From an uncultured Chthonomonas sp. (lineage in GTDB: Bacteria; Armatimonadota; Chthonomonadetes; Chthonomonadales; Chthonomonadaceae): a stretch of 56,378 nt of DNA. Within the stretch, counting starts at the first letter, position 1, and each line of letters begins with the position of its first letter. A model generated the notes under the pieces. That model had not been told where the DNA came from. It searched no databases and saw only the letters and a list, made by a program, of their open reading frames with translations. The position numbers and the translations under genes were made by a program. Below, piece after piece: positions 89 to 39,224 of the stretch. The DNA lies in the NCBI GenBank assembly GCA_903919615.1, contig CAIXIX010000425.1, positions 1 through 56,378 of the forward strand, in the 5' to 3' direction.

Positions 89-304
89 TCAGCTTTGGTT
101 CTGGCTCTGCCAGGTTAGGTAGTGGGGTAATTTCTTGCAGGAAATGCGGAAAAGGGCATCATTCTCCGATACCACACAGAAGGCCGGAACCGGATTGGCC
201 AACAGCAACTGAAGTTCCTTCTTCAATCGCCTGCCAAACTCGTCGTCTCTCACGAGGTGTACAAACACACTGGTGTCCAATAAAACCGGAGTTACCCCGG
301 CCAC
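89..304 (-). pseudogene. Truncated PIN-domain (VapC-like) toxin remnant
   Basis: The product starts with GTG and reads VLLDTSVFVHLVRDDEFGRR, the classic first strand and acidic residue of a PIN-domain ribonuclease (VapC toxins cut RNA with a cluster of acidic residues). Similarity lasts about 45 residues, to FCVVSE. The remaining residues come from a dispersed repeat, so the frame ends at 71 residues where PIN toxins have about 130, and later catalytic acids are missing. A frameshift near base 175 is likely, because a neighbouring frame gives GIGE, a better fit to the conserved glutamate region. The GTG overlaps the stop of the upstream antitoxin remnant by one base (TAGTG), the usual coupling in such pairs. 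It is very probably inactive. Confidence 0.6.
90..130. repeat. GGTTCTGGCT/GGTAATTT dispersed repeat, copy 1
   Basis: TTTGGTTCTGGCTCTGCCAG followed by GTTAGGTAGTGGGGTAATTT closely matches 33325-33356, where the same words read TTTGGTTCTGGCTTTGCCAG and GTTGGGTAATTT. The repeat forms the false C-terminus of the adjacent toxin remnant, so it probably arrived by insertion or recombination that truncated that gene. Confidence 0.6.
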
Positions 305-414
305 TACGACAGTTCTCCAAGGGCATTGTCGATCTGGTCATCAGTCTCGTCACCGGGCCATTTGGCAGAAACTACATTAGCGAGTGTTTTACCAGCGGGT
401 ACTGTATTACCGAA
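304..414 (-). pseudogene. Antitoxin remnant upstream of the VapC-like fragment
   Basis: A 36-codon open stretch with no usable start codon ends in WPGDETDDQIDNALGELS and a TAG that shares its G with the GTG of the toxin fragment. A short C-terminal tail with WPGDE(T/S)D and an acidic helix is typical of small antitoxins encoded just before PIN toxins, but I assign this from pattern and position only. The N-terminal DNA-binding part is gone: a TAA at 417-415 closes the frame and the glycosidase gene begins a few bases further on. Confidence 0.4.
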
Positions 415-422
415 TTACCTAT

Positions 423-2087
423 TTACCTTCTAACCTCGACGTTCCCAGCCCTGGTTAACACGACGGTAACTGGATACTGACTTGCGGTGAGATTCAGTTT
501 TGAACCTGCTGGAAGCTGAGACCGATTGCCCATAGGATCGATGAGCGCTGCTCGGCTCCAGTTGCCCTGTAGCGTTAACGGTACGGTCTTATCGGGACTG
601 CTGAGCGAGATCAGGGTTTCACCGCCTCTTTTGAACCGATAAACGGTAACGTCTGCATCGCGCTTCAAGATGCTTTCGAATTGTGCGCCTGTGTAGGTGT
701 CGATGAAGGCACAGAGCGCCGCATAGGCAAACCGAGGGCAGAAAGTGTAATCGAGATAACCCCAGTCTGGATCTTTGCGCATACGCGGTCCGCCGATCTC
801 CCGGGATGCGTAGAGAAACGCCGCTCGGTGGCCTTCTGCCCAGCATTCGAGGAGTTTCTGCATGCCAGTCGCTGCCTGCATCCTCTCCATGTCCAACCGC
901 CAGGCGGCCCAGCCCATCTCTGTGTTTACCACGTTCTGCTTCTCAGCGTCTGCAGCCTTCAGAATGGTCCTCAGGTTTGTTAACATCTTCCGTAAGGCAT
1001 TGACGTCGCCATGAGAGTGGTACGCGAACCAATCGGTCATCTTGCCGATTGGCCCTGCCATAATGGGGGTCCACTCCGGCTTCATCATGCAGTACCCACC
1101 TGGCGCGATCGGAATGGTCGGATCTACCTTTCGGATCTCCTCCATCGCCCAGCGATGCTGTGTGATGAACTCCTCCGGAGTGCCTCGCCAGAAATCCAGA
1201 TTGTCTGGCTCATTCCACACTTCGATAAACCGCGCGTGCTTGCCGTACCGCGAAACCAGCGTGTGAACGTAGCGCCTGTATGGCGCCTCGGCACGCGGAT
1301 AGCGCCAGGCGGGATCCGTCACTTTGGCATACTTCTCAAGAATGGGCGGAGGCGCGCCGATCTGCAGATCCAGTTTGATGCCGTTTCGAGCGCATTCTGC
1401 AGTGTATGCGTCAAGGAGATCCGTATCGATCCAGGCCGTCGGGCCCTCATCGCCGCGCGTTGGGATATCTGGCCGCACAAGCTGAACCCCGGTTCGTGCG
1501 GTCAATTCAGCATCGAGCCGCCACGACTGCTCAGCGGTAAGGCCAGGCGGTGCAGCGGTTCCGTAGGCGTTCGTCCACGACTGTCTCCCCGGAAAGGTGC
1601 ACAGGCCGATCTGAAAATGCGATTTTGCCCATTGCGCCTGCTTGCCTATATTGGAGACACAAGCTGCAATACTTCGCATACGTCGCCACTTGATATCCTT
1701 ACCAGAAAGCCCATCGAGTGTGAGCAGGTAGCCGCCGGCCCCTTCGATCCTGATATGCAGTGCGGCCGTCTCCTTCGCCTCAAATGGGCTCTGGTACACC
1801 GGACGGTTGTCCCAATCCCAGATTGTAAGCAGCGCCCGGTCACAAGTGTCACCGGGCTTTACCGTTACATCGATTGCGGCATCGGGACCCGGCGCTGTAA
1901 TCCAGGAGTAGGGCTTGCTGCTCTCGATCTGACCTGCACCTGGCGTAGTATCAGCATCGGTAGGCGTTTCGTTAAGCAGCGGCGCGCCATTCAGTGCCAC
2001 TGTTGCCATCGCGGGGCGAAGAGTGATTGTTGCCGTGTTTACGCGAAAAGGAGCCAAGAATGCCAACAAACTGAGGAAAGGGAACAT
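423..2087 (-). CDS. Exported clan GH-A glycoside hydrolase (GH39-like)
   Basis: A 554-residue enzyme predicted to cleave glycosidic bonds outside the cytoplasm. After a hydrophobic N-terminal segment comes a beta-rich region (about residues 20-150), then a TIM-barrel. The barrel contains RFIEVWNEPDNLDFW with the general acid/base at about E293, and VVNTEMGWAAW with the nucleophile at about E390. The Asn-Glu pair and the second Glu about 100 residues later are hallmarks of clan GH-A. Sequence style is closest to GH39 and related families; the substrate is not deducible. A short beta domain ends the protein. A longer frame reaches 2321, but its first 78 residues come from repeat DNA (a 9-base tandem array and a GCGAGG-rich element), so I start at the ATG before MFPFLSLLAFL. 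The ribosome site there is weak. Confidence 0.75.
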   Translation of the reverse strand: MFPFLSLLAFLAPFRVNTATITLRPAMATVALNGAPLLNETPTDADTTPGAGQIESSKPYSWITAPGPDAAIDVTVKPGDTCDRALLTIWDWDNRPVYQSPFEAKETAALHIRIEGAGGYLLTLDGLSGKDIKWRRMRSIAACVSNIGKQAQWAKSHFQIGLCTFPGRQSWTNAYGTAAPPGLTAEQSWRLDAELTARTGVQLVRPDIPTRGDEGPTAWIDTDLLDAYTAECARNGIKLDLQIGAPPPILEKYAKVTDPAWRYPRAEAPYRRYVHTLVSRYGKHARFIEVWNEPDNLDFWRGTPEEFITQHRWAMEEIRKVDPTIPIAPGGYCMMKPEWTPIMAGPIGKMTDWFAYHSHGDVNALRKMLTNLRTILKAADAEKQNVVNTEMGWAAWRLDMERMQAATGMQKLLECWAEGHRAAFLYASREIGGPRMRKDPDWGYLDYTFCPRFAYAALCAFIDTYTGAQFESILKRDADVTVYRFKRGGETLISLSSPDKTVPLTLQGNWSRAALIDPMGNRSQLPAGSKLNLTASQYPVTVVLTRAGNVEVRR

Positions 2088-2153: not shown

Positions 2154-2225
2154 TAGGATTAGGTCTTTGAAGCCTATGACGTCTTTGAAGTCTGTGAGGT
2201 TGGAGAGGTCAATAAGGGAAGCGGG
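2154..2225. repeat. Degenerate 9-base tandem array
   Basis: From base 2163 the sequence can be cut into consecutive nine-base units: GTCTTTGAA, GCCTATGAC, GTCTTTGAA, GTCTGTGAG, GTTGGAGAG, GTCAATAAG. One or two weaker units lie on each side. The consensus is about GTCTTTGAR. In the minus frame it reads as a three-residue repeat (DFK-DVI-GFK-DLI), but I regard it as non-coding because it lies upstream of the likely start of the glycosidase. Confidence 0.6.
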
Positions 2226-2318
2226 CAGAATGGATCGGTCGCCGCTTCGCCTCTTGATCCGCCACCGAACGGCGGCGAGGCGAGCGAACCGAGCAGCGAC
2301 CCTACCGCGTGGACTAAA

Positions 2319-2530
2319 CATGAATCATATCTCTGGAGGCCATTTGTAGGTACAAAGCGGTGCGGACTGAATGCATCCCCCTCCCCGACCCTAACAATGT
2401 ATCATATCTCGGCGGGACTAAATGTCGCTCCGCGATGCACGCATTTTGTCCCCTCCCCGCGAGCTTGCGAGCAAATGTGGGAGGGGTTGGGGAGGGGGCA
2501 GGGTAGCGCGCCTCCGGAAGATGGCCGAAG
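2319..2530. repeat. C/G-rich dispersed inverted element, tandem pair
   Basis: Two related blocks follow one another. Each opens with an ATCATATCTC word (2325 and 2401) and then reaches a CCCCTCCCC tract (2373 and 2451). The second block continues GCGAGCTTGCGAGCAAATG and GGGAGGGGTTGGGGAGGGGG, so the C-tract and G-tract can pair into a long hairpin. It ends with GCCTCCGGAAGATGGCC, a tail also seen at 4431, 42856, 53343 and 55100. No coding signal is visible. Confidence 0.65.
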
Positions 2531-2588
2531 ACATGATACATGTGTAGCCGTTTGGCAGGTTGACCATTCGATGAAACTAAATCGCCAG

Positions 2589-2704
2589 ATATGGCGTATT
2601 AGTAGCCTCTAAATAAGACTTATACGCCATATATGACGTATAATTTGGCATATCGACTTTTATGGCGAATTAACTTCATATTGTGCGCTTAATACGCCAT
2701 AATA
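2589..2704. promoter_or_regulatory. Operator cluster upstream of hipBA
   Basis: Copies of a TAATACGCCATA-type word in alternating orientation crowd the AT-rich region before hipB: ATATGGCGTATTAG at 2589-2602, TATACGCCAT at 2621-2630, ATATGACGTATA at 2631-2642, TTATGGCGAATTAA at 2660-2672 and TTAATACGCCATAATA at 2689-2704. The second and third copies face each other and form a 22-base near-palindrome with one mismatch per half. HipB-type proteins are known to bind several such sites and repress their own promoter, so I infer an autoregulatory array. A possible promoter is TTGGCA at 2645 with AATTAA at 2668, 17 bases apart, which would lie between operators. Confidence 0.7.
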
Positions 2705-2712
2705 GTGTTATT

Positions 2713-3060
2713 ATGATACTTACATCGGATCTGCCGGATGAGGTTCTGTTGCGAGAGTTGGGCGAGCGCATGGAGGCGCAGAGGTTGTCGCGCAATCTTA
2801 CACAGGCGCAGCTTGCGAAAGAGGCGGGCGTATCTCGCCGCACTATCGAACGAATGGAGGCCGGCGCGGTTGGTACGCAGTTATCCGTGTTTCTGCGAGT
2901 GTGCCGTGCCCTGGATATCATCCCAAGATTCGAGCTTCTCCTCCCTGCTCCTGAGCCAAGCCCCATCGACATGCTGCGCTACAAACAGACGCGGCGTAGA
3001 CGAGCGCGCGTGGTTAAGGAGAAGGCAAGAACCGAATGGACATGGGGTGATGAGGCATGA
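2713..3060 (+). CDS. hipB: HipB-like XRE antitoxin and autorepressor
   Basis: A 115-residue protein with a lambda-repressor-type helix-turn-helix at about residues 24-51 (LTQAQLAKEAGVSRRTIERM). It should bind the operator cluster immediately upstream and neutralise the HipA kinase encoded next. I choose the ATG at 2713 rather than an in-frame GTG at 2683, because the GTG would lie before the last operator copy. The C-terminal tail is basic then acidic (RRRRARVVKEKARTEWTWGD), longer than in minimal HipB and plausibly the part that contacts HipA. Its stop codon overlaps the hipA start in ATGA, giving translational coupling. Confidence 0.85.
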   Translation: MILTSDLPDEVLLRELGERMEAQRLSRNLTQAQLAKEAGVSRRTIERMEAGAVGTQLSVFLRVCRALDIIPRFELLLPAPEPSPIDMLRYKQTRRRRARVVKEKARTEWTWGDEA

Positions 3061-29082: not shown

Positions 29083-30843
29083 CTACAACTCTTTTACGTA
29101 TTGCAGCAGGTCGGAAATCTCACCTTTATTAAGTAGATTCGCCTTTCCATGCAATTTTTGTTGGTTGTGCTCCGAGAACACAGATTCAAGAGTAGGAGCC
29201 GAACCATCGTGAAGATACGGATAGGTGTCGAACACCCCATCAAGCCGGGGCGCTTTGAGCAGAACGCCCTTCGGAGTCGTGCCAATCCAGACGGCAGTCG
29301 ATCTGCGCAGTTCTTTGGGTGATGTGGTATGGCAAGCGATGCAGCCTCCCTTGACCTCGAACAGAGCTTTCCCACGCTGCGCTGACAGGGTAAGCGTACC
29401 TCCTGGTGCGCGGTTCGGGTTGCGGGTCTGCGGAAGCGAGCCCACATAGGTGGCAATAGCATTCACCTGTTCGACGTTTATTGGCGGTGAATGCAGCAGC
29501 CCCACAGCCTCCTGCTTGATAAAGGCTGCAAGAGTTGCTTCGCGTCCGCTCCAGCGGTAGGGCGGAGATTCGGCAATCTCACCTCGAAGTCCTTTAACAT
29601 TGCGCTCCAATTTGTTGCCAAGCGCATCCTGAACATGGGTGAACTTCCAGGAGATCCCATCGGATCCGCCATCCGGATGGCAAGAGTTACAGCTGAACTG
29701 GGCACCATTTACGATGGTTGCAGAACCAAATAGATACCGCCCAAGGAGATTGGAATCGTGACGTGAAGTCGGGCCAAGATTGATGCGCTTGATCAGTTTG
29801 AGATTGCTGGTATCGATCACGGCGATATCATTGCTCAGCAGATTGGCGACCCACAGCTGTTTGCGATCTGAAGTAATAGCCATTCCGCGCGGCTGTGCCC
29901 CGACATTGCGAATGGCGATAGTGTCGCCATCGTTGTTAATAGGCACTACATTTACGCTGTCGCCGCCGCTGCAGGAAACGAATGCTCGCCTGTGCGGATT
30001 GTCCAGCACAACGGAATCGGGATCGGCGACATCCTGCCCCATCAGATCCAGCCAGAGATTCTGCAGCCCGTTTCTTGGGCCCTCGGGAACCTGAACAAAG
30101 GCCTGATTCGACCAGATTCCTACTGCCGACTCGGTGGGCCGCTCATTCTGCGCTCTCTGCCCGACCGCGAAAACCGTTCGATTGTCCGGGTAAAGCGCGA
30201 CGCCGCGAAGATTGACCGCCGGAGTCAATCCCCGATTGCGCTCTGTCATCGCTGCAGTATCGAGATAGCTCACCGAACCAGCTGTTAGATTGGCAGAGAC
30301 CAGTGTTCCGCCATCGGGCGAAATTGCAAGCGCACGAGGTCTGCGGTCGGTGCTAATATTGCCGAGACGGCTGCCAGTCGCAATGTCGAACACTGCCACT
30401 TGATCTAGCTGACTTATGGAGACATAGGCCTTCTTGTCGTCCGGAGAGAGAGCGACTCCCCACGGCGCCCCAGGCGTATCCACAATCTTTTCTTTGCCAG
30501 AGGCGAGATCGACAAAGGCAACCGATCCACTAAAGCTATTCGCCACGATGGCGGTTCGGCCATCACGCGTAACTCCCACACCTGTTGGCTGTGATCCACC
30601 GGAGGAGATATGGCGAAGCACACGTTCCGAAGCGATATCGATAATGGCGATGGCGCCCTCATCGAACTCGGTCACAACGGCTCGCGTGCCATCGGAGGTA
30701 AATGCAATTGCGAAGGGTCCACGATTGCCACCAAGTGCAGGCTTTACTCGATCCGGATTCTGAGCGCTGCCGTTCGGAAGAACCAACACAATAGCGATAA
30801 CAAACGCGATCGTGGTTGGGATAAGCCACCGCATTTTACGCAT
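29083..30843 (-). CDS. Exported beta-propeller with c-type cytochrome domain
   Basis: About 586 residues. A basic start and hydrophobic helix (MRKMRWLIPTTIAFVIAIVL) export it. Residues about 40-350 are a YVTN/YncE-type beta-propeller with blade repeats such as GAIAIIDIASERVLRHIS, AFVDLASGKEKIVDTPG and VAVFDIATGSRLGNIS. The C-terminal third is a cytochrome c peroxidase-like region with two haem motifs, CNSCH (about residue 384) and CIACH (about 499), plus a methionine-poor tail. Such fusions occur in secreted electron-transfer or surface proteins. I prefer the ATG at 30843; a GTG ten codons earlier has no ribosome site either. Confidence 0.78.
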   Translation of the reverse strand: MRKMRWLIPTTIAFVIAIVLVLPNGSAQNPDRVKPALGGNRGPFAIAFTSDGTRAVVTEFDEGAIAIIDIASERVLRHISSGGSQPTGVGVTRDGRTAIVANSFSGSVAFVDLASGKEKIVDTPGAPWGVALSPDDKKAYVSISQLDQVAVFDIATGSRLGNISTDRRPRALAISPDGGTLVSANLTAGSVSYLDTAAMTERNRGLTPAVNLRGVALYPDNRTVFAVGQRAQNERPTESAVGIWSNQAFVQVPEGPRNGLQNLWLDLMGQDVADPDSVVLDNPHRRAFVSCSGGDSVNVVPINNDGDTIAIRNVGAQPRGMAITSDRKQLWVANLLSNDIAVIDTSNLKLIKRINLGPTSRHDSNLLGRYLFGSATIVNGAQFSCNSCHPDGGSDGISWKFTHVQDALGNKLERNVKGLRGEIAESPPYRWSGREATLAAFIKQEAVGLLHSPPINVEQVNAIATYVGSLPQTRNPNRAPGGTLTLSAQRGKALFEVKGGCIACHTTSPKELRRSTAVWIGTTPKGVLLKAPRLDGVFDTYPYLHDGSAPTLESVFSEHNQQKLHGKANLLNKGEISDLLQYVKEL

Positions 30844-30933
30844 GAAGGGAGTGTTAATCGTTCGAAAATTCACAGATTTTATGATGACACATCCAGATTA
30901 ATTCGCGAATCGATCCGTACCACTAGACAGTTT

Positions 30934-30955
30934 TATAGTACATATGTATACTATA
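30934..30955 (+). promoter_or_regulatory. Dyad upstream of recQ
   Basis: TATAGTA at 30934-30940 and TACTATA at 30949-30955 are perfect inverted arms around CATATGTA. The inner AGTACATATGTATA is one base from the cyanobacterial LexA-box pattern (RGTACNNNDGTWCB), and the site lies about 45 bases before the recQ start, where a promoter operator would be. It could also just be the -10 region (TATACTAT). Control by a LexA-like repressor is inference. Confidence 0.4.
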
Positions 30956-30999
30956 TTCCGTGTACTCAAACGGATCTTATCAGGAGGAGATCGATTACT

Positions 31000-32952
31000 A
31001 TGGTGGCCGCGCCCGCATCAAAACCAACCTACCGACGCTTGCTGCGAGACGTGTTTGGCTTCGACGAATATCGTCCCGGACAGGAACAGGTGCTTAAAGC
31101 TCTGCATCAGCACGGCGCTGCACTTGCCGTTTTTCCGACTGGCGGCGGTAAATCGCTCTGCTACCAACTTCCTGGTCTTCTGTACGATGGCGTTACCGTA
31201 GTCGTTTCTCCTCTGATAGCGCTAATGAAGGATCAGATCGATTTTCTGCGCTCGCGAGGCGTCGCTGCTGCCCGGCTAGACTCCTCTCTCACGCTCGAAG
31301 AGCAGCAGTCCGTTACCGCTTCTCTGAGCGACGGCACTCTGAAGCTACTCTATGTTGCACCCGAACGATTTAACAACGAGAGATTCCGTGCACTCATGAG
31401 CAGAACGCATGTGTCGCTGTTCGCCGTGGACGAGGCGCACTGCATCTCGGAGTGGGGGCACAATTTTCGGCCAGACTATCTGAAGCTAACGGAGTATTTT
31501 CGGGAAATCAAAGCTGAGCGGGTTCTGGCGTTAACTGCGACAGCAACTCCACCCGTCGTGAAAGACATCTGCGCTGCATTTGGCATTGCTGAAGAGTGCG
31601 CCATCGTAACTGGCTTCTATCGCGCGAATCTACAGATGCTTATGACGCCTACGGCACGTCGTGAGAAAGAGAAAAAGCTGCTGGAGAGACTGCGAGCTCG
31701 TCCGTTAGGCTCAACCATCGTCTATGTGACGCTTCAAAAGACGGCCGAAGTGGTGGCGGATCAACTCTGCTCGGCTGGCTTCAAAGCGATGGCCTATCAT
31801 GCCGGCATGGAGGATGATCAACGCGCAGCCGTGCAAGAGTGGTGGATGGCTTCCAGTACCGGCATCGTCGTGGCCACCATTGCATTTGGTATGGGTATCG
31901 ATAAGTCGGATGTGCGCTACATCTATCACTACAACCTGCCCTCCGGGCTGGAGGCATACAGCCAGGAGATTGGGCGCGCCGGACGGGATGGCAAGGACTC
32001 AATTGTAGAGCTGTTTGCATGCAGTGCCGACCTGCCAACGGTGGAGAACTTCGCCTATGGCGACACGCCAACTGAGGCAGCCATTCGCGGAGTACTGTCT
32101 GAACTTCCGCCGCCCGGATCTGAGTACATTGTTAGCCAATACGACCTCTCTGCCCGGCACGATATTCGTCCTCTCGTGTTGAAGACACTGCTGACGTACC
32201 TCGAGCTTCTCGGCGTTTTGAAGCAAGGCACCCCATTTTATGCGACCTACGCAGTGAAACTGCTTCGGCCCGAAGCGGAGATCCTGCAGCAGTTTAGTGG
32301 CGCTCCGGCAGAACTGCTGCGAAGTATCTTCGCGAAGAGCAAGAAGGGAACGTCGAAAGGCGCCGTTAAGTACAGTGTAACTCCAGATGACGTTGCTGCA
32401 AGTTTGAAAGAGGAGCGAAAGCGCATTGTGCGTGCGCTCGAGGTGCTGGAGGAGCGCGGATTTGTTGAGATCTCCGCCTCAGAGGTGCGGCAGAAGTTCC
32501 AGATCCTCCAACAGTCTGCCTCAACCGAAGAGCTCACGAAAGAGCTATTTGAGCGGTTCCATAAGCGCGAAACGCAGGCAATCACCGGCGTTGGCCGCGT
32601 TCTTAAACTGGCAGCCCATGCGGGATGCCAGACAAATGCACTTGCGAAATACTTTGGAGAAGTGCGCCATGCACCCTGCGGTCACTGCAGCTTCTGTATA
32701 AACGGAGCAGCAGCGGTTCTTCCTTCTGAGCCTCAGCCCGGCCCTGTCGAAAACGAGTTTAGCGCGGATGACCTTGACGACCTGCGCAAATCGAATCCGG
32801 AGGCCCTTGGCTCTGCCCGTCAGACGGCACGCTTCCTGTGCGGGCTCAGCAGCCCCGCCGCAACGAAGGCACGACTGGGGAGAAACAGGCTTTCTGGCAC
32901 CTGCGCAAACAGACGCTTTCATGATGTGCTGATGTGGGTGCAAGAAAGGTAA
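31000..32952 (+). CDS. recQ: RecQ-family ATP-dependent DNA helicase
   Basis: A 650-residue 3'-to-5' DNA helicase. Motifs in order: the Q-motif region VFGFDEYRPGQEQV, Walker A FPTGGGKSLCYQLP (about residues 45-58), SPLIALMKDQ, DEAH in FAVDEAHCISEWGHNFRPDY, TATATP, and AFGMGIDKSDVRYIYHYNLP with GRAGRDG. A zinc-binding block follows with cysteines in CQTN, CGHCSFC. The C-terminal tail (ARQTARFLCGLSSPAATKAR, LGRNRLSGT, FHDVLMWVQ) is a region found in one RecQ subgroup in place of HRDC. The start at 31000 has AGGAGG about 12 bases upstream; an open frame runs upstream to 30610 but is antisense to the cytochrome gene. Confidence 0.88.
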   Translation: MVAAPASKPTYRRLLRDVFGFDEYRPGQEQVLKALHQHGAALAVFPTGGGKSLCYQLPGLLYDGVTVVVSPLIALMKDQIDFLRSRGVAAARLDSSLTLEEQQSVTASLSDGTLKLLYVAPERFNNERFRALMSRTHVSLFAVDEAHCISEWGHNFRPDYLKLTEYFREIKAERVLALTATATPPVVKDICAAFGIAEECAIVTGFYRANLQMLMTPTARREKEKKLLERLRARPLGSTIVYVTLQKTAEVVADQLCSAGFKAMAYHAGMEDDQRAAVQEWWMASSTGIVVATIAFGMGIDKSDVRYIYHYNLPSGLEAYSQEIGRAGRDGKDSIVELFACSADLPTVENFAYGDTPTEAAIRGVLSELPPPGSEYIVSQYDLSARHDIRPLVLKTLLTYLELLGVLKQGTPFYATYAVKLLRPEAEILQQFSGAPAELLRSIFAKSKKGTSKGAVKYSVTPDDVAASLKEERKRIVRALEVLEERGFVEISASEVRQKFQILQQSASTEELTKELFERFHKRETQAITGVGRVLKLAAHAGCQTNALAKYFGEVRHAPCGHCSFCINGAAAVLPSEPQPGPVENEFSADDLDDLRKSNPEALGSARQTARFLCGLSSPAATKARLGRNRLSGTCANRRFHDVLMWVQER

Positions 32953-32953
32953 A

Positions 32954-32968
32954 TGGGTAATTTGGTAG
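32954..32968. repeat. TGGGTAATTTGGT direct repeat, left copy
   Basis: TGGGTAATTTGGTAG at the left of the decayed intron nearly equals TGGGTAATTTGGTGG at 33347-33361 on its right. They may be a direct repeat created around the inserted remnant, or two members of the dispersed GGTAATTT family also present at 115-130. Confidence 0.5.
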
Positions 32969-32984
32969 TTGGTATCCTACCAGA

Positions 32985-33137
32985 GGCATCATATCGCCCG
33001 TCCTGGCAAACATGGCACTGGACGGTATCGAAAAGCTGCTTACGAAAATACAAGCCGCTGTAAATCCATATCACCCTAAATGGAAGGAATGCCTCCAGAA
33101 AAGGCACGATAAAGAGCAGCGACTCAAATGCGCATGA
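32985..33137 (+). pseudogene. Group II intron reverse-transcriptase fragment
   Basis: Fifty codons in one frame read GIISPVLANMALDGIEKLL, the highly conserved segment that follows PQGG in intron-encoded reverse transcriptases (the stretch just before the YxDD catalytic block). The next residues, KIQAAVNPYHPKWKECLQKR, are plausible but less conserved, and a TGA ends the frame. The YADD active site, the thumb/maturase domain and the endonuclease are all absent. Confidence 0.72.
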
Positions 33138-33202
33138 TGCCTGTTGAACATCACAAAGCGAACTGCTGCACCGCGTTCCTCACGGGAGCGTTAGAGAGGC
33201 TT

Positions 33203-33234
33203 GAGCCGTGTGTGGAAACGCGCAAGCACGGTTC
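33203..33234 (+). ncRNA. Group II intron domain V hairpin
   Basis: GAGCCGTG at 33203-33210 pairs with CACGGTTC at 33227-33234, including the G-U pair expected in the AGC catalytic triad region. The upper stem is TGTG with CGCA and the loop is GAAACG. A two-base bulge (AG) separates the stems, as in active domain V. GAGCCGTRTG...CACGGTTC is the signature of bacterial group II introns. The upper stem is shorter than usual, consistent with decay. Confidence 0.72.
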
Positions 33235-33322
33235 ATAGAGGAGGAGAGAGCAGTAATGCTCTCTGCTTGCTCGGCGGTTCGGCACGCACGCCCCAACCAT
33301 CCGGCAGGTGAGGGGCAGTACG

Positions 33323-33365
33323 AGTTTGGTTCTGGCTTTGCCAGGTTGGGTAATTTGGTGGCGGG
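33323..33365. repeat. GGTTCTGGCT/GGTAATTT dispersed repeat, copy 2
   Basis: GTTTGGTTCTGGCTTTGCCA, then GGTTGGGTAATTTGGTGGCG. It matches the copy at 95-130 near-perfectly and lies just beyond the stop of the large helicase gene and next to the intron remnant. Confidence 0.6.
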
Positions 33366-33375
33366 AGCGGGCGCC

Positions 33376-36300
33376 TTACACAAGCTCTAGCGCCAGAATT
33401 TGACCTCCACGAACCTCAACGCGGGAATCTAGCTCCAGCAGAGCGATCGCATCATTGATGTGATCACGCATGTTGGCGCTTGTGCTGCGATAGCCGAATA
33501 ACCGCGCGAGCTCAACGACAAGCTCATCGTGCCGCATCCCGTAGCTCGCGCGCAGAAGCAGAATTGCGACCTCGCCGATCTCCTCGAGGCAGATCTGGTC
33601 AATCGGCCGAGTCGGCGCTCCAGGTTTGGCGATTCGTGCCGGATAGTGTTCAATACCAGTCGGATACAGGAATCCAAGTCTCGGTTCAAGCTTACCTTGA
33701 TTGATAAGACCATCTATCGTTTCCTCAACGATGTCCCGCACTCGGGGTCCGACCCGGCTTATCCCAACTGCTTCGGGAATGCGCTTCACGACCTCTTCGT
33801 AGAGCAGTGGCCCCTCAATATTTAGTAACTGTAACAAGAGGTCCGCCCGGCTCCTTTCGGCCGCAATCGACGTATCGTAGAACCTATCGCGGTCCCACAT
33901 TACCGTGGGAGTGGAGCGTTCGTAATACGCCATCCCTGGAAGCAGTTGAGTGGCTTCCAGTGTGACAGGGGTAACAGGAATCGGTTTGACCGTTGGTTCA
34001 CGTTGGTTCCCGACTATTGGCACAACGGCGCTCTCGGAGTGCCCTACTTCCTGGATGGATTCGGGCAATGTCTCGTGTATAGCCTGCTCTGTGGTCTCTA
34101 CATGACGGACCTGTGAGGCTCTGATAGCATCTTCAACTCGTGAGAGTTCACGCGCCGGATTTCGGATCCAATCCGAAGACCAGACCCGATGCAGTCGCCA
34201 ACCCAGGTCGTTTAGCACTTCGTCTCGCAATCGGTCCCGAGCGCGAACGGTCTCTCCCGAGACATAGAGTGGGCCATCCGTCTCGATGCCCAGCATATAT
34301 TCATCCGGCACGTCTGGACGCACCACCCCGAGGCCAACGACGTGACCAAACCGCCCGACATTTGATTTGATGGTATATCCGCACCTGCGCAGCGTTACTT
34401 CGATCGCTTGCTCGAAATCTGATTGAGCGCGTTGTTCACCAGGAAGGGAGAGCCCTCCGGATTGCGCGTACTCCAGGTATTCGCGCAGCCTGGTCGGCCC
34501 AACCTTGTTCGTCTTCGCCGGATCGATATCGGTCGCCGACATTGAGGTCACGACCGTCATGCGAATGCGTGCGCGGGTAATCGCTACATTGAGCCTTCTT
34601 TCGCCGCCGTCGTTGTTCAGCGGACCGAAGTTCATTGAAACCGTTCCGGCCGGGGTACGCGCATAGCAGACGCTGAGGAAGATCGCATCTCTCTCATCCC
34701 CCTGCACATTTTCAATGTTCTTTACAAAGAACCCCTCGGAACCCTCTTCGTTGAGCAGGCGGGCAAGCTCCGGGTCCTGTCTCCTCTGCCCTTCAAACAG
34801 GTCCTCAATTACCGCTTTTTGGGCCTCATTAAACGTGATTACGCCAACAGAGTGAAGCGGGTTAGCCCGCATGTAGTCAATAACCTGTGCAACAACCACC
34901 TCGGCTTCTCTCGGATTATTGCGTTTGCCTTTGCCCGGATAGTAGATGCCATCCGGAACCTGGACTAATGTAACGGCTGACGCGGCCGTTGGCGCCGGGA
35001 ACGGGATGATTCTTTCGTAGAAATGGACCTTGGAAAACGCGATTAGCGATTCATGCCTGCTTCGATAGTGCCAGGTGAGCTCGTGCTCCGCGAATCGCGT
35101 TTCCGCCAGACTGGAGCCGGACGAGATGGCGGAACTGCCGTCGCACTGGGCCAGCAGTCCTGCCGCCTGAAGGATGCTCTCATAGCTGGCTACGGCCTCC
35201 TCGTCGCTATCTTCATCCTCGTCTGGATCTTCCGCCAGGGACTTGAAGAACGGGGTTGGCGGTAGCTGCCTCGTATCTCCGGCGATAATCACCTGATTGG
35301 CCCTGACCAGCGCGCATAGCGCATCCTCGATAAACACCTGGGACGCTTCATCAAATATTACGGTGTCAAACTGGAATGCTCCAGATTCTAAGTAGAGGCT
35401 TACGGATAACGGGCTCATCAATAGGCATGGTTTGTACTGAAACAAAACATCAGGAATATCGGCCAGGAGTCTACGGATTGATCGCAACCGTTTACTGACA
35501 AGCAGTTTCTTGAAAGCGCCCATCTGCCCGACAGCCAGCGAGTGCCCTGAAGCTCTGCTCTGGACCGCAGCTCTAACACGTTCGGGCGCCGTATCGATGG
35601 CCCCCCGGTCCATAGCACGAAACTGGGCGATCAACTGCGCATGCTGTTCACCTCGAAACTGCCGAAGTTCTGGGACTGTATCGCAGACTTGATCGTACCA
35701 GAGCTGAAAGAACCTTTTGCGAAACGCGGGCACCACTTGCTGCGCGTCTGGTTGGCGATGTACGGTTGTTTCATAAAATGAGAGCAGACCGGAACGTTCA
35801 CACTCAACGCGAAGGTTCTGGTAATCGATCCATTGTTCCAGCTCGGAAAGCCGATCTAACCGCTTTTGCACCCATTCCGATACCGCTTTGAAACTTGCAT
35901 CGGCAAGCGGTGTTTCTTCGACGAAGAGTTGCGAAGCAGGCAGAAACCGTTCCATACCTGAAGTGCACCGATCAAGATTGCTGATACTGCTTTCCAACCG
36001 CACCCTGGACTTCGCAACGTCATCAAGAAGCCCGACACGGCCCGACACAGCAACTTGAACCAGACGATCGGGTATGGAACTGCCGTCAAACGAAGCTCGC
36101 AGACGTTGACACCAGTCCAAACCGGATAGCACTGCTTGCCAGTCGGTTTCCAGTCCGTGAAAAAAGCCTGTGTACCGCTGCCGTAACCTCTCCGACTCGC
36201 TCTCGATCTCGGATTCAAGAGCGTTAATCGCCGCCGCGTTGCTCAACGCATCCAGCATGGACAATACTGAGAAAGAGGCAACAGGTGTCGATGAGGACGA

Positions 36301-39042
36301 TTGCCCCCTACTGCGGCATGCGACAACCGTGGCATATGCTGCATGATAGTCATCCAGGGCAGCCAGGACAGTCAGCAGCCAATCGCGGAATTGAGCTAGA
36401 GATACTTGAGTCAACGGCAAATCAGTAAACGGAAGCTCTGCGAGAGACAAATAGTTCTTGAGGTCCAGCAATGCAACATCGAACCGTTCATACATCGCGT
36501 TTGTCTGGAAGTAGATCTCAGCGAGAGCCTCAATGGCTCTGCCAGACGCGATCATTGTTTCCGCCAATGGTGCTGGCACAGCCTGACCAGGCAGCGTGGA
36601 AATAAGCTCGTACTGCAAGTCAACACGTCTGGATACATCAGCCCAATTCGTAGCCTGTCCACGGAAGTGTGTACCCAACGTCTCCTGCAACGCTGCGCTT
36701 TGCTGCTCGATCCATCCAGCATCGTTCACGACTTGCTTTGCGAGACCGATATCCTCGTGCAGCGAGCGACCTGAGCCGGCTCCGCCTGGCCTTGCGCATC
36801 TGAGGACCGCGGATCGATCACGATAAAAGGCAGATTGGAACCATCGTGAGATGCCGGAGTATTGGGTTGAGAATCGTGTGTGAAGCGTGGAGAGATCGAG
36901 GCTAAAGAGTTCCTCCGAATATGTTTTGAACAAACTCTCGCGATTGGCAGCATACCGCTGATATATGGATGTCGCCTCGGCAACCTCCGCCTTTATCTTT
37001 GTGAGGCTTGCCGCCTGGAACCAGTTTGTCTGAGGTCGTATGTCAGAAGAGACGATTTCAGATACCTTGCACAGAAACCGGCAGTTACTGATGGTAGGCT
37101 CCGCCTCGAGGTGACACATGCTGGCCAGGGTATTGACCGACCGGGCCAGAGACTGAGCGAGTTCGGCGGTGCTCTCGATTGCACTGCGAATGTGCTGGTA
37201 GTCGGAGGAGGCTGTTTCCTGCCACGCAGTTCCCAGGATGCGGCGCAATACGCCTTCATTGCTTGAGGACAGCCGTGCTGAGAGCTGCTCATGAGGCAGA
37301 TCAAAGATTGGGGTCGACCAGGTCTCCAAAATGGCCGTGCGCTGCGCGAAGTAGGACAGGTACCTGGTTTGACAAGCTGATGCAAGCGTGCGCAGTTCGG
37401 TCATGTCCCCGCCGATTAGCCATGCCTCGGGCGGATGCGGCGTGCTTGCGAGTAGCCCCGCGACGACGCTGGCATGTCTGGCCTGTCCCAGGTTTTCCGG
37501 CGGTTCGAGTCCGCAAAGCTGTGCCGTCTCCCGTCCAATAACGCCGCATGCCACGATTGCAGCGATGAGATCATTGAGCACTGTTCGAACATTTGTCTGG
37601 AGTTCAAGAGTAAAGTGGTCGGCAAGGATTCCGCGCCAGGGATGCGTCCATGTCTGCGAAAACAGATGGTGATGGCTCGCAAGCCGCTCCACGAGCCGTT
37701 CCAACAGTAGAAAACCGCCCTCATCGACAGCATCCGGTCCGACAAATGTAAACGGCAGGTCGATAACATTTTCCGCGGCCGCGATCTTGCCGCAGACCTC
37801 GTACAGAGATAATTGTAAGGGAGACCGTCTGGAATGCAGATCCGCTGCAACATCACTGAGTTGCTGCTTGATCCAATCGAACTTAACCCGTTCATCGGGC
37901 GCGGTCTGTACAATCTGCTTCTGCGCCTCGTAAGCTCTGCGTAACTGCTCAACAAATTGCCGTTTGTCGGTCTTATGACTGTGAGCCTCAAGGCAGAGGG
38001 CATGCAGGCGCTTATCACGAAGCCGCTTGAACACCGCGTCAAGAGCTGCCATCTTCTGGGAAACGAAGAGTACACGCTTACCATCGGCGATGCCTTCCGC
38101 AATGATATTGGCGATCGTCTGCGTTTTGCCGGTGCCGGGCGGCCCTTGCAGAACGAAGCTCTGTCCACGTTTGGCGGCGAGAATGGCGCGCTGCTGGCTC
38201 GGGTCCGCATCGAGAACGCTGTAGAGCGTCATCCCCCTCGTTTCGGTATCGATTTCCGTAAGACTCGGAACCGATATGGTAAGCAACTGCATGAGTGCCG
38301 TCGTATCGCCGGCCAACGCTTGAATCACGGGATGGCTACAGGCCCGTTCAAACTGGCGTTCGAGATCCCGGTACATTGCCATCTTAAGAAACGAAAAGCG
38401 ACCCAGGGTAATGGTGTCGGATACGGTCCACAATGGCTGCCCGGTTAGCGTCTCACGAACGGTCTGAAGGTAGTTAGCCGGCAGGAAATCCTCTTCCTCC
38501 GGCATTGGCGGCAGCTGGATATTGATGTCTGGTAGACCGAATCGATAGACCAGGGTGGGGTTTAACTCAACCTCTCCATCGATCCGCGACATCTGCAGCG
38601 CATCGACGCCAGGAATACGTACCAACGATACAGGCAGTAACGCAATCGGCGTAATCAGTGTCTCGCCGTTGTTCGGATCGGTCCATTGCAGCGTACCAAA
38701 CGCTAGAAACAGGATATTGATTCCCTGCTCGCGAATCGCGGATGTGCCCCTTTCACGCAATGAGTTCAACAACTTAAATTCGTCCGGACTAACTTCAATC
38801 TGGCTGATCGGCCGCCTGGGGTCTGGCTCGCGATCTAGCGGGCTCTCTTCTCTTAGTGTAGTGAAGATGTAGTGCTTCCTGGCAGAGCGTAGAAACGTGA
38901 AAGTATCATCCGCAGATTGGTGATCCATGGAGATCAAGCCCCGGTTGTTCCGCGGGTAACAGTACAGGGGATTGCGTCTGTTGAGCTCAATTAATCTTGA
39001 TTGCCACAACAATATTTGTTGTTTAACCCGATCTGTCGCCAT
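33376..39042 (-). CDS. DUF4011/SF1 helicase/Vsr-like nuclease/DUF3320 giant protein
   Basis: A 1,888-residue single-chain protein with four parts: an N-terminal DUF4011 domain (about 1-240: LLWQSRLIELNRRNPLYCYP), an SF1 helicase (Walker A GPPGTGKT at about 300-307; DEAS in VIFDEASQVFIEDALCALV about residue 1232; RLNVAITRARIRMTVV about 1484), a Vsr/MTES_1575-type endonuclease (about 1545-1640, with VVRPDVPDEYMLGIETDGP and DLGWRLHRVWSSDW), and a C-terminal DUF3320-like winged region. Between the ATPase halves lies a long coiled-coil-rich insert of about 850 residues. Proteins of this architecture are reported as anti-phage defence effectors; I infer the same here. ATG at 39042 has GGAAGAG just before it. 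It is not in an operon and has dispersed repeats on both sides. Confidence 0.85.
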   Translation of the reverse strand: MATDRVKQQILLWQSRLIELNRRNPLYCYPRNNRGLISMDHQSADDTFTFLRSARKHYIFTTLREESPLDREPDPRRPISQIEVSPDEFKLLNSLRERGTSAIREQGINILFLAFGTLQWTDPNNGETLITPIALLPVSLVRIPGVDALQMSRIDGEVELNPTLVYRFGLPDINIQLPPMPEEEDFLPANYLQTVRETLTGQPLWTVSDTITLGRFSFLKMAMYRDLERQFERACSHPVIQALAGDTTALMQLLTISVPSLTEIDTETRGMTLYSVLDADPSQQRAILAAKRGQSFVLQGPPGTGKTQTIANIIAEGIADGKRVLFVSQKMAALDAVFKRLRDKRLHALCLEAHSHKTDKRQFVEQLRRAYEAQKQIVQTAPDERVKFDWIKQQLSDVAADLHSRRSPLQLSLYEVCGKIAAAENVIDLPFTFVGPDAVDEGGFLLLERLVERLASHHHLFSQTWTHPWRGILADHFTLELQTNVRTVLNDLIAAIVACGVIGRETAQLCGLEPPENLGQARHASVVAGLLASTPHPPEAWLIGGDMTELRTLASACQTRYLSYFAQRTAILETWSTPIFDLPHEQLSARLSSSNEGVLRRILGTAWQETASSDYQHIRSAIESTAELAQSLARSVNTLASMCHLEAEPTISNCRFLCKVSEIVSSDIRPQTNWFQAASLTKIKAEVAEATSIYQRYAANRESLFKTYSEELFSLDLSTLHTRFSTQYSGISRWFQSAFYRDRSAVLRCARPGGAGSGRSLHEDIGLAKQVVNDAGWIEQQSAALQETLGTHFRGQATNWADVSRRVDLQYELISTLPGQAVPAPLAETMIASGRAIEALAEIYFQTNAMYERFDVALLDLKNYLSLAELPFTDLPLTQVSLAQFRDWLLTVLAALDDYHAAYATVVACRSRGQSSSSTPVASFSVLSMLDALSNAAAINALESEIESESERLRQRYTGFFHGLETDWQAVLSGLDWCQRLRASFDGSSIPDRLVQVAVSGRVGLLDDVAKSRVRLESSISNLDRCTSGMERFLPASQLFVEETPLADASFKAVSEWVQKRLDRLSELEQWIDYQNLRVECERSGLLSFYETTVHRQPDAQQVVPAFRKRFFQLWYDQVCDTVPELRQFRGEQHAQLIAQFRAMDRGAIDTAPERVRAAVQSRASGHSLAVGQMGAFKKLLVSKRLRSIRRLLADIPDVLFQYKPCLLMSPLSVSLYLESGAFQFDTVIFDEASQVFIEDALCALVRANQVIIAGDTRQLPPTPFFKSLAEDPDEDEDSDEEAVASYESILQAAGLLAQCDGSSAISSGSSLAETRFAEHELTWHYRSRHESLIAFSKVHFYERIIPFPAPTAASAVTLVQVPDGIYYPGKGKRNNPREAEVVVAQVIDYMRANPLHSVGVITFNEAQKAVIEDLFEGQRRQDPELARLLNEEGSEGFFVKNIENVQGDERDAIFLSVCYARTPAGTVSMNFGPLNNDGGERRLNVAITRARIRMTVVTSMSATDIDPAKTNKVGPTRLREYLEYAQSGGLSLPGEQRAQSDFEQAIEVTLRRCGYTIKSNVGRFGHVVGLGVVRPDVPDEYMLGIETDGPLYVSGETVRARDRLRDEVLNDLGWRLHRVWSSDWIRNPARELSRVEDAIRASQVRHVETTEQAIHETLPESIQEVGHSESAVVPIVGNQREPTVKPIPVTPVTLEATQLLPGMAYYERSTPTVMWDRDRFYDTSIAAERSRADLLLQLLNIEGPLLYEEVVKRIPEAVGISRVGPRVRDIVEETIDGLINQGKLEPRLGFLYPTGIEHYPARIAKPGAPTRPIDQICLEEIGEVAILLLRASYGMRHDELVVELARLFGYRSTSANMRDHINDAIALLELDSRVEVRGGQILALELV

Positions 39043-39224
39043 AGCTCTTCCAATCGCGCGAGAGCGCACATCCTATAACTTAACCGTAATCCTATTTGAT
39101 CTTCGCTAATTACCCAGGGTCACAAACTCACAATCGATTCCCATCGGCTAATCGATGACTGATGATATCAGATCAGCACAAAAAGCTCAATGTCATACGG
39201 CGGCATGGCCGCATGATACAGGGA

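What the first reader, a model, noticed from the sequence alone, without database searches (positions are those of the whole stretch)
32985..33265. Remnant of a group II intron (RT scrap plus domain V)
A reverse-transcriptase segment (GIISPVLANMALDGIEKLL) and a canonical domain V hairpin stand 65 bases apart on the same strand, with a plausible domain VI behind. Everything else is missing. This looks like a deletion derivative kept as junk or as a structured RNA. Neither part is found by simple gene calling.
Basis: seen in the sequence. Interest (0 to 1): 0.6.

Follow-up and report, generated by a model that had tools for sequence, protein, structure and literature searches.

The report
Dead fragment of group II intron
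This is the broken 3' end of a selfish RNA element (a group II intron), left behind between two bacterial genes with its catalytic core damaged; such fossils are common in bacteria and this one is ordinary.

Summary
Window 32976-33277 (+) is the 3' end of a CL-type (TeI4h-like) IIB group II intron in an Armatimonadota genome (family Chthonomonadaceae), lying between recQ and a convergent DUF4011-type gene. It keeps about 300 nt of a roughly 2.2-kb element. The reading frame joins two separate parts of the intron protein: the RT GIISPVLAN block, then, after an in-frame loss of about 209 codons, the protein's extreme C-terminus (VNPYHPKWKECLQKRH). After that come the end of domain IV, domain V and domain VI. 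Domain V scores 33.9 bits with Rfam RF00029 (genome-wide E 1.8e-4), below the gathering cut-off of 40.

It is not canonical. Domain V is 32 nt, against 34 nt in all 76 relatives aligned, and the branch-point A is G (75 of 75 relatives have A). Domains I-III and the 5' splice site are absent from the window. It cannot splice or move by known mechanisms and looks like genomic debris. No promoter, terminator, second copy or conserved position supports a kept RNA function. A nearly identical kind of fragment (TeI3g, ~340 nt) is published. Interest is low. A side observation, an in-frame TGA at a conserved Trp codon in two related introns, is more curious.

The parts
32976..33047 (+). RT-domain scrap (motif GIISPVLANMALDGIEKLL, 32985-33041), residues ~148-171 of the homologous intact protein
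   Evidence: tblastn-type match to intact intron protein L029, 67% identity; own profile 33.1 bits; TIGR04416 E 0.0014
33040..33048 (+). Junction of the in-frame internal deletion (about 209 codons of the intron protein missing)
   Evidence: Protein positions 148-171 and 381-406 of L029 abut in the same frame; profile positions 267-289 and 494-519 likewise
33045..33134 (+). C-terminal end of the intron protein (VNPYHPKWKECLQKRHDKEQRLKCA), stop TGA 33135-33137; no HNH endonuclease part
   Evidence: 58% identity to L029 C-terminus over 33045-33122
33168..33202 (+). 3' end of domain IV and linker to domain V
   Evidence: Continuous DNA match with intact intron L029 over 33168-33245, 84%
33203..33234 (+). 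Domain V hairpin, 32 nt (2 nt missing from the distal helix)
   Evidence: RF00029 match; 34 nt in all 76 aligned relatives; folds with z -3.3
33235..33277 (+). [quoted passage not shown]
   Evidence: RF00029 match to 33275; shared end CTCGGCGG with C262
33269..33269 (+). Branch-point position: G instead of the bulged A
   Evidence: 75 of 75 relatives with sequence at this column carry A
32954..32966 (+). 13-nt direct repeat, left copy (TGGGTAATTTGGT)
   Evidence: related to a dispersed 8-nt-period repeat of this genome, so not good evidence of a target-site duplication
33347..33359 (+). 13-nt direct repeat, right copy

Best explanation
A mobile CL-type (TeI4h-like) group IIB intron, encoding an RT-maturase without an HNH endonuclease, once inserted behind recQ. 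Later deletions removed its 5' half (domains I-III and the N-terminal part of its protein) and about 630 nt inside its protein gene. What remains is the 3' end, with point damage to domain V and the branch site. It can no longer be translated into an RT, splice, reverse-splice or move, and is decaying in the gap between two convergent genes. The identity of the pieces and the damage are shown. That it was inserted whole and then deleted, rather than inserted already truncated at the 5' end, is inferred, and so is the lack of function.
For: RT and C-terminal segments are collinear with intact relatives and in one frame. The domain IV end, domain V and domain VI are collinear with intact introns. 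RF00029 match E 1.8e-4 genome-wide. The closest solved relative of the intact protein is the maturase RT 6me0 (E 4e-138; TeI4h by my own knowledge of that entry). Relatives in the same order carry RF02012 domains I-IV plus RVT_1, GIIM and RF00029. No trace of the 5' domains was found beside the remnant. Domain V is 2 nt short and the branch A is G, each unique among the aligned relatives. No promoter- or terminator-like site. recQ keeps its normal C-terminus. Published: most bacterial copies are truncated or inactivated (PMC4424553), and a very similar fragment, TeI3g, is described (PMC2882425).
Against: The internal deletion is in frame and the hairpins still fold well (z -3.3 to -3.5), which would also be seen if the RNA were kept. 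One in three random deletions is in frame, and young debris still folds. Only one copy exists, so conservation cannot be measured.
Confidence: 0.95

Rival explanations
1. The remnant is kept as a structured RNA, for example a 3'-end stabiliser or convergent terminator for recQ built from the domain V and VI hairpins.
For: It sits directly behind the recQ stop codon (32952) and before the convergent DUF4011-type gene (33376); both hairpins fold better than shuffles.
Against: No terminator-like site. The hairpins are inherited from the intron. No such element was matched behind recQ in G001 or G006. No second copy of this form.
Confidence: 0.03
2. It is the 3' half of a split, trans-splicing or trans-complemented intron whose other half lies elsewhere in the genome.
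For: The same genome has a full-length ORF-less relative with domains I-VI on C262.
Against: That relative has its own domains V-VI. The remnant has lost the branch A and 2 nt of domain V, and there is no exon gene split around it (recQ is complete).
Confidence: 0.01
3. A variant of the best explanation: the insertion was already 5'-truncated (incomplete reverse transcription) and then lost an internal piece, rather than a full intron that was later deleted.
For: The 3' end is complete and the 5' part is missing, as incomplete target-primed reverse transcription would give.
Against: The internal deletion needs a second event anyway, and repeats flanking the remnant offer a deletion route. The empty site is not available.
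Confidence: 0.25
4. Chance resemblance.
For: The default Rfam threshold is missed.
Against: Independent protein and RNA evidence on one strand in the right order, E 2e-11 and 1.8e-4, plus an 86% DNA match.
Confidence: 0.001

Closest known systems
TeI3g, group II intron fragment of Thermosynechococcus elongatus (PMC2882425)
   Same: About 300-340 nt from the 3' end of a TeI4h-type intron, beginning inside the protein gene
   Different: The window remnant starts further upstream (RT block), has a second, internal deletion, comes from a lineage whose protein lacks a detectable HNH endonuclease, and has lost the branch A
CL-type introns in the same order: G028:C491 (L029), G002:C67 (L030)
   Same: Same order of parts; 84% DNA identity around domain V; RT piece 68-76% and C-terminal piece 44-58% identical
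   Different: They are full length (~2.2 kb) with domains I-VI and a nearly whole protein gene
ORF-less intron on G000:C262 (own genome)
   Same: 86% identical over the last 90 nt; same unusual 3' end CTCGGCGG
   Different: Full-length RNA (~0.93 kb, domains I-IV and V-VI found) without the protein gene; its 5' base is C instead of G

Membership tests
Group II intron, CL/IIB lineage (as a fragment) | Domain V hairpin with AGC triad and two-base bulge | tested here: met
   RF00029 33.9 bits, E 1.8e-4 genome-wide; triad and bulge present, distal helix 2 nt short
Group II intron, CL/IIB lineage (as a fragment) | Intron-encoded RT-maturase of the same lineage | tested here: met
   Two collinear pieces of it; the lineage's nearest solved structure is 6me0
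Functional group II intron | Domains I-III and 5' GUGYG end | tested here: not met
   No match of intact introns' 5' parts near the remnant; no RF02012 match in the window
Functional group II intron | Bulged branch-point A in domain VI | tested here: not met
   G at 33269; A in 75 of 75 relatives
Functional group II intron | Open RT with YADD and maturase (X) domain | tested here: not met
   The deletion removes protein residues ~172-380, covering YADD and GIIM
ORF-less group II intron mobilised in trans | Complete ribozyme without the protein gene | tested here: not met
   Ribozyme core absent from the window

The most novel reading that the evidence does not exclude
The domain V/VI remnant has been kept as a structured 3' element of the recQ transcript, an exapted piece of a catalytic intron in bacteria.
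Probability: 0.03. Interest if true: 0.45.

Novelty: new member of a known kind. Interest (0 to 1): 0.12.

Why it matters
As a fossil it shows that a CL-type intron with a protein gene was once present in a genome where the searches now find only an ORF-less full-length relative and an RT of another group II type. It matters mainly as a reminder that default Rfam thresholds and gene callers miss such remnants. It does not change what is known about group II introns.

Tried and rejected
Target-site duplication: the 13-nt direct repeats at 32954 and 33347 are related to an 8-nt-period repeat that is over-represented in this genome (33 sites against 8 for the reversed control) and the right copy abuts a dispersed hairpin repeat, so they are not taken as a duplication of the intron's target. 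tRNA remnant next to the right repeat: ARAGORN finds no tRNA in the window. Insertion that truncated recQ: relatives' RecQ ends at the same place. Empty-site comparison: the same-genus genome G001 has recQ but no match to the neighbouring DUF4011-type protein, so there is no orthologous site to compare. bxd_4 Rfam match (E 1.6) is chance.

Full report
What was checked. The window lies on contig C425 of a 7.42-Mb, 614-contig genome. The finding lies between the stop codon of a RecQ-type helicase gene (30610-32952, DEAD, Helicase_C and RecQ_Zn_bind) and the end of a convergent large gene (33376-39069, DUF4011, AAA_11, AAA_12, MTES_1575).

RNA part. The default Rfam search finds nothing in the window. 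With a lower threshold RF00029 matches 33201-33275 with 33.9 bits over the whole model. Over the complete genome the same match has E 1.8e-4 and ranks sixth after five stronger domain V sites. DNA comparison is stronger still: 33188-33277 is 86% identical to a site on C262 of the same genome (E 2.6e-21), and 33168-33245 is 84% identical to an intact intron in another family of the order.

Protein part. A profile of 73 intron proteins, searched against all frames of the window, gives one significant hit, the frame 32961-33134, with two domains in order: profile 267-289 (RT block, GIISPVLAN) and 494-519 (extreme C-terminus). A search of the own genome with the L029 protein finds the same two pieces independently at 32976-33047 and 33045-33122, covering residues 148-171 and 381-406. 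The frame therefore runs from the RT block straight into the C-terminus, with about 209 codons missing, including YADD and the maturase domain.

Which intron. The intact relatives have RVT_1 and GIIM domains, RF02012 domains I-IV and RF00029 domains V-VI, and begin with GTGCGAC or a close variant. Their nearest solved structure is the maturase RT 6me0 (E 4e-138), which I know as TeI4h, a CL-type IIB intron. L029 and L030 show no HNH match, and the short C-terminus in the window fits that architecture.

Damage. In an alignment of 77 domain V-VI sequences the window is the only one with a 32-nt domain V (76 others have 34) and the only one with G at the branch position (75 others A, one without sequence). 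The 5' part of intact introns, a little over half of their length, finds no counterpart beside the remnant. By established knowledge (domain VI bulged A as branch site, domain I for exon recognition; PMC4424553) such an element cannot splice by branching or be mobile.

Context. RecQ ends at the same place in two relatives, so the intron did not cut the gene. The same-genus genome shows no match to the remnant or to the neighbouring DUF4011-type protein. The 13-nt direct repeats that flank the remnant belong to a repeat type scattered in the genome, and the right one abuts a dispersed hairpin repeat. They may have helped deletions but are no clean target duplication.

Known or new. Bacterial group II introns are mostly truncated or inactivated (PMC4424553; PMC4028801). 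A fragment of the same kind, about 340 nt from the 3' end starting in the protein gene, is described as TeI3g (PMC2882425). The window element is one more case, with an added internal deletion.

Verdict. Nothing tested supports a kept RNA function.

Noticed in passing
L029 (G028:C491) and L030 (G002:C67), start of the intron protein: Both introns carry an in-frame TGA at the same conserved Trp codon (GVDG.T[TGA].TP), where 68 other matches examined have TGG. The proteins are about 61% identical, and the frame before the TGA is about as constrained as after it (pN/pS 0.38 and 0.31). Either UGA is read through or recoded here, or a shared nonsense codon splits the protein. Only two cases are known.
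   Followed up: partly
L036 (G000:C262), about 146-1090, minus strand: A full-length ORF-less group II intron (RF02012 and RF00029 matches, about 0.93 kb), apparently an orphan: no intact protein of its own lineage was found in this assembly. Its first base is C, not G.
   Followed up: partly
L032 (G036:C77), about 2198-3044: Another ORF-less intron of the same lineage (about 0.85 kb) in a more distant genome of the phylum, where no full-score group II RT was found.
   Followed up: partly
L009 (G000:C517:45-1127), with domain V sites on C308, C496 and C262:3603-3695: A second group II intron family in the same genome, with an RT of another type and several domain V copies near contig ends.
   Followed up: no
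window 33325-33347 and 94-116: Dispersed short hairpin repeat TTTGGTTCTGGCNNNGCCAGGTT: 17 copies in this genome, 40 in G006, 7 in G025, one in G020 and none in the other relatives searched; often at contig ends. Possibly a REP- or MITE-like element.
   Followed up: partly
G000:C496:1168-1212, C481, C117 and others: Short tandem repeats of period 8 (TTGGTAAT)n scattered in the genome.
   Followed up: no
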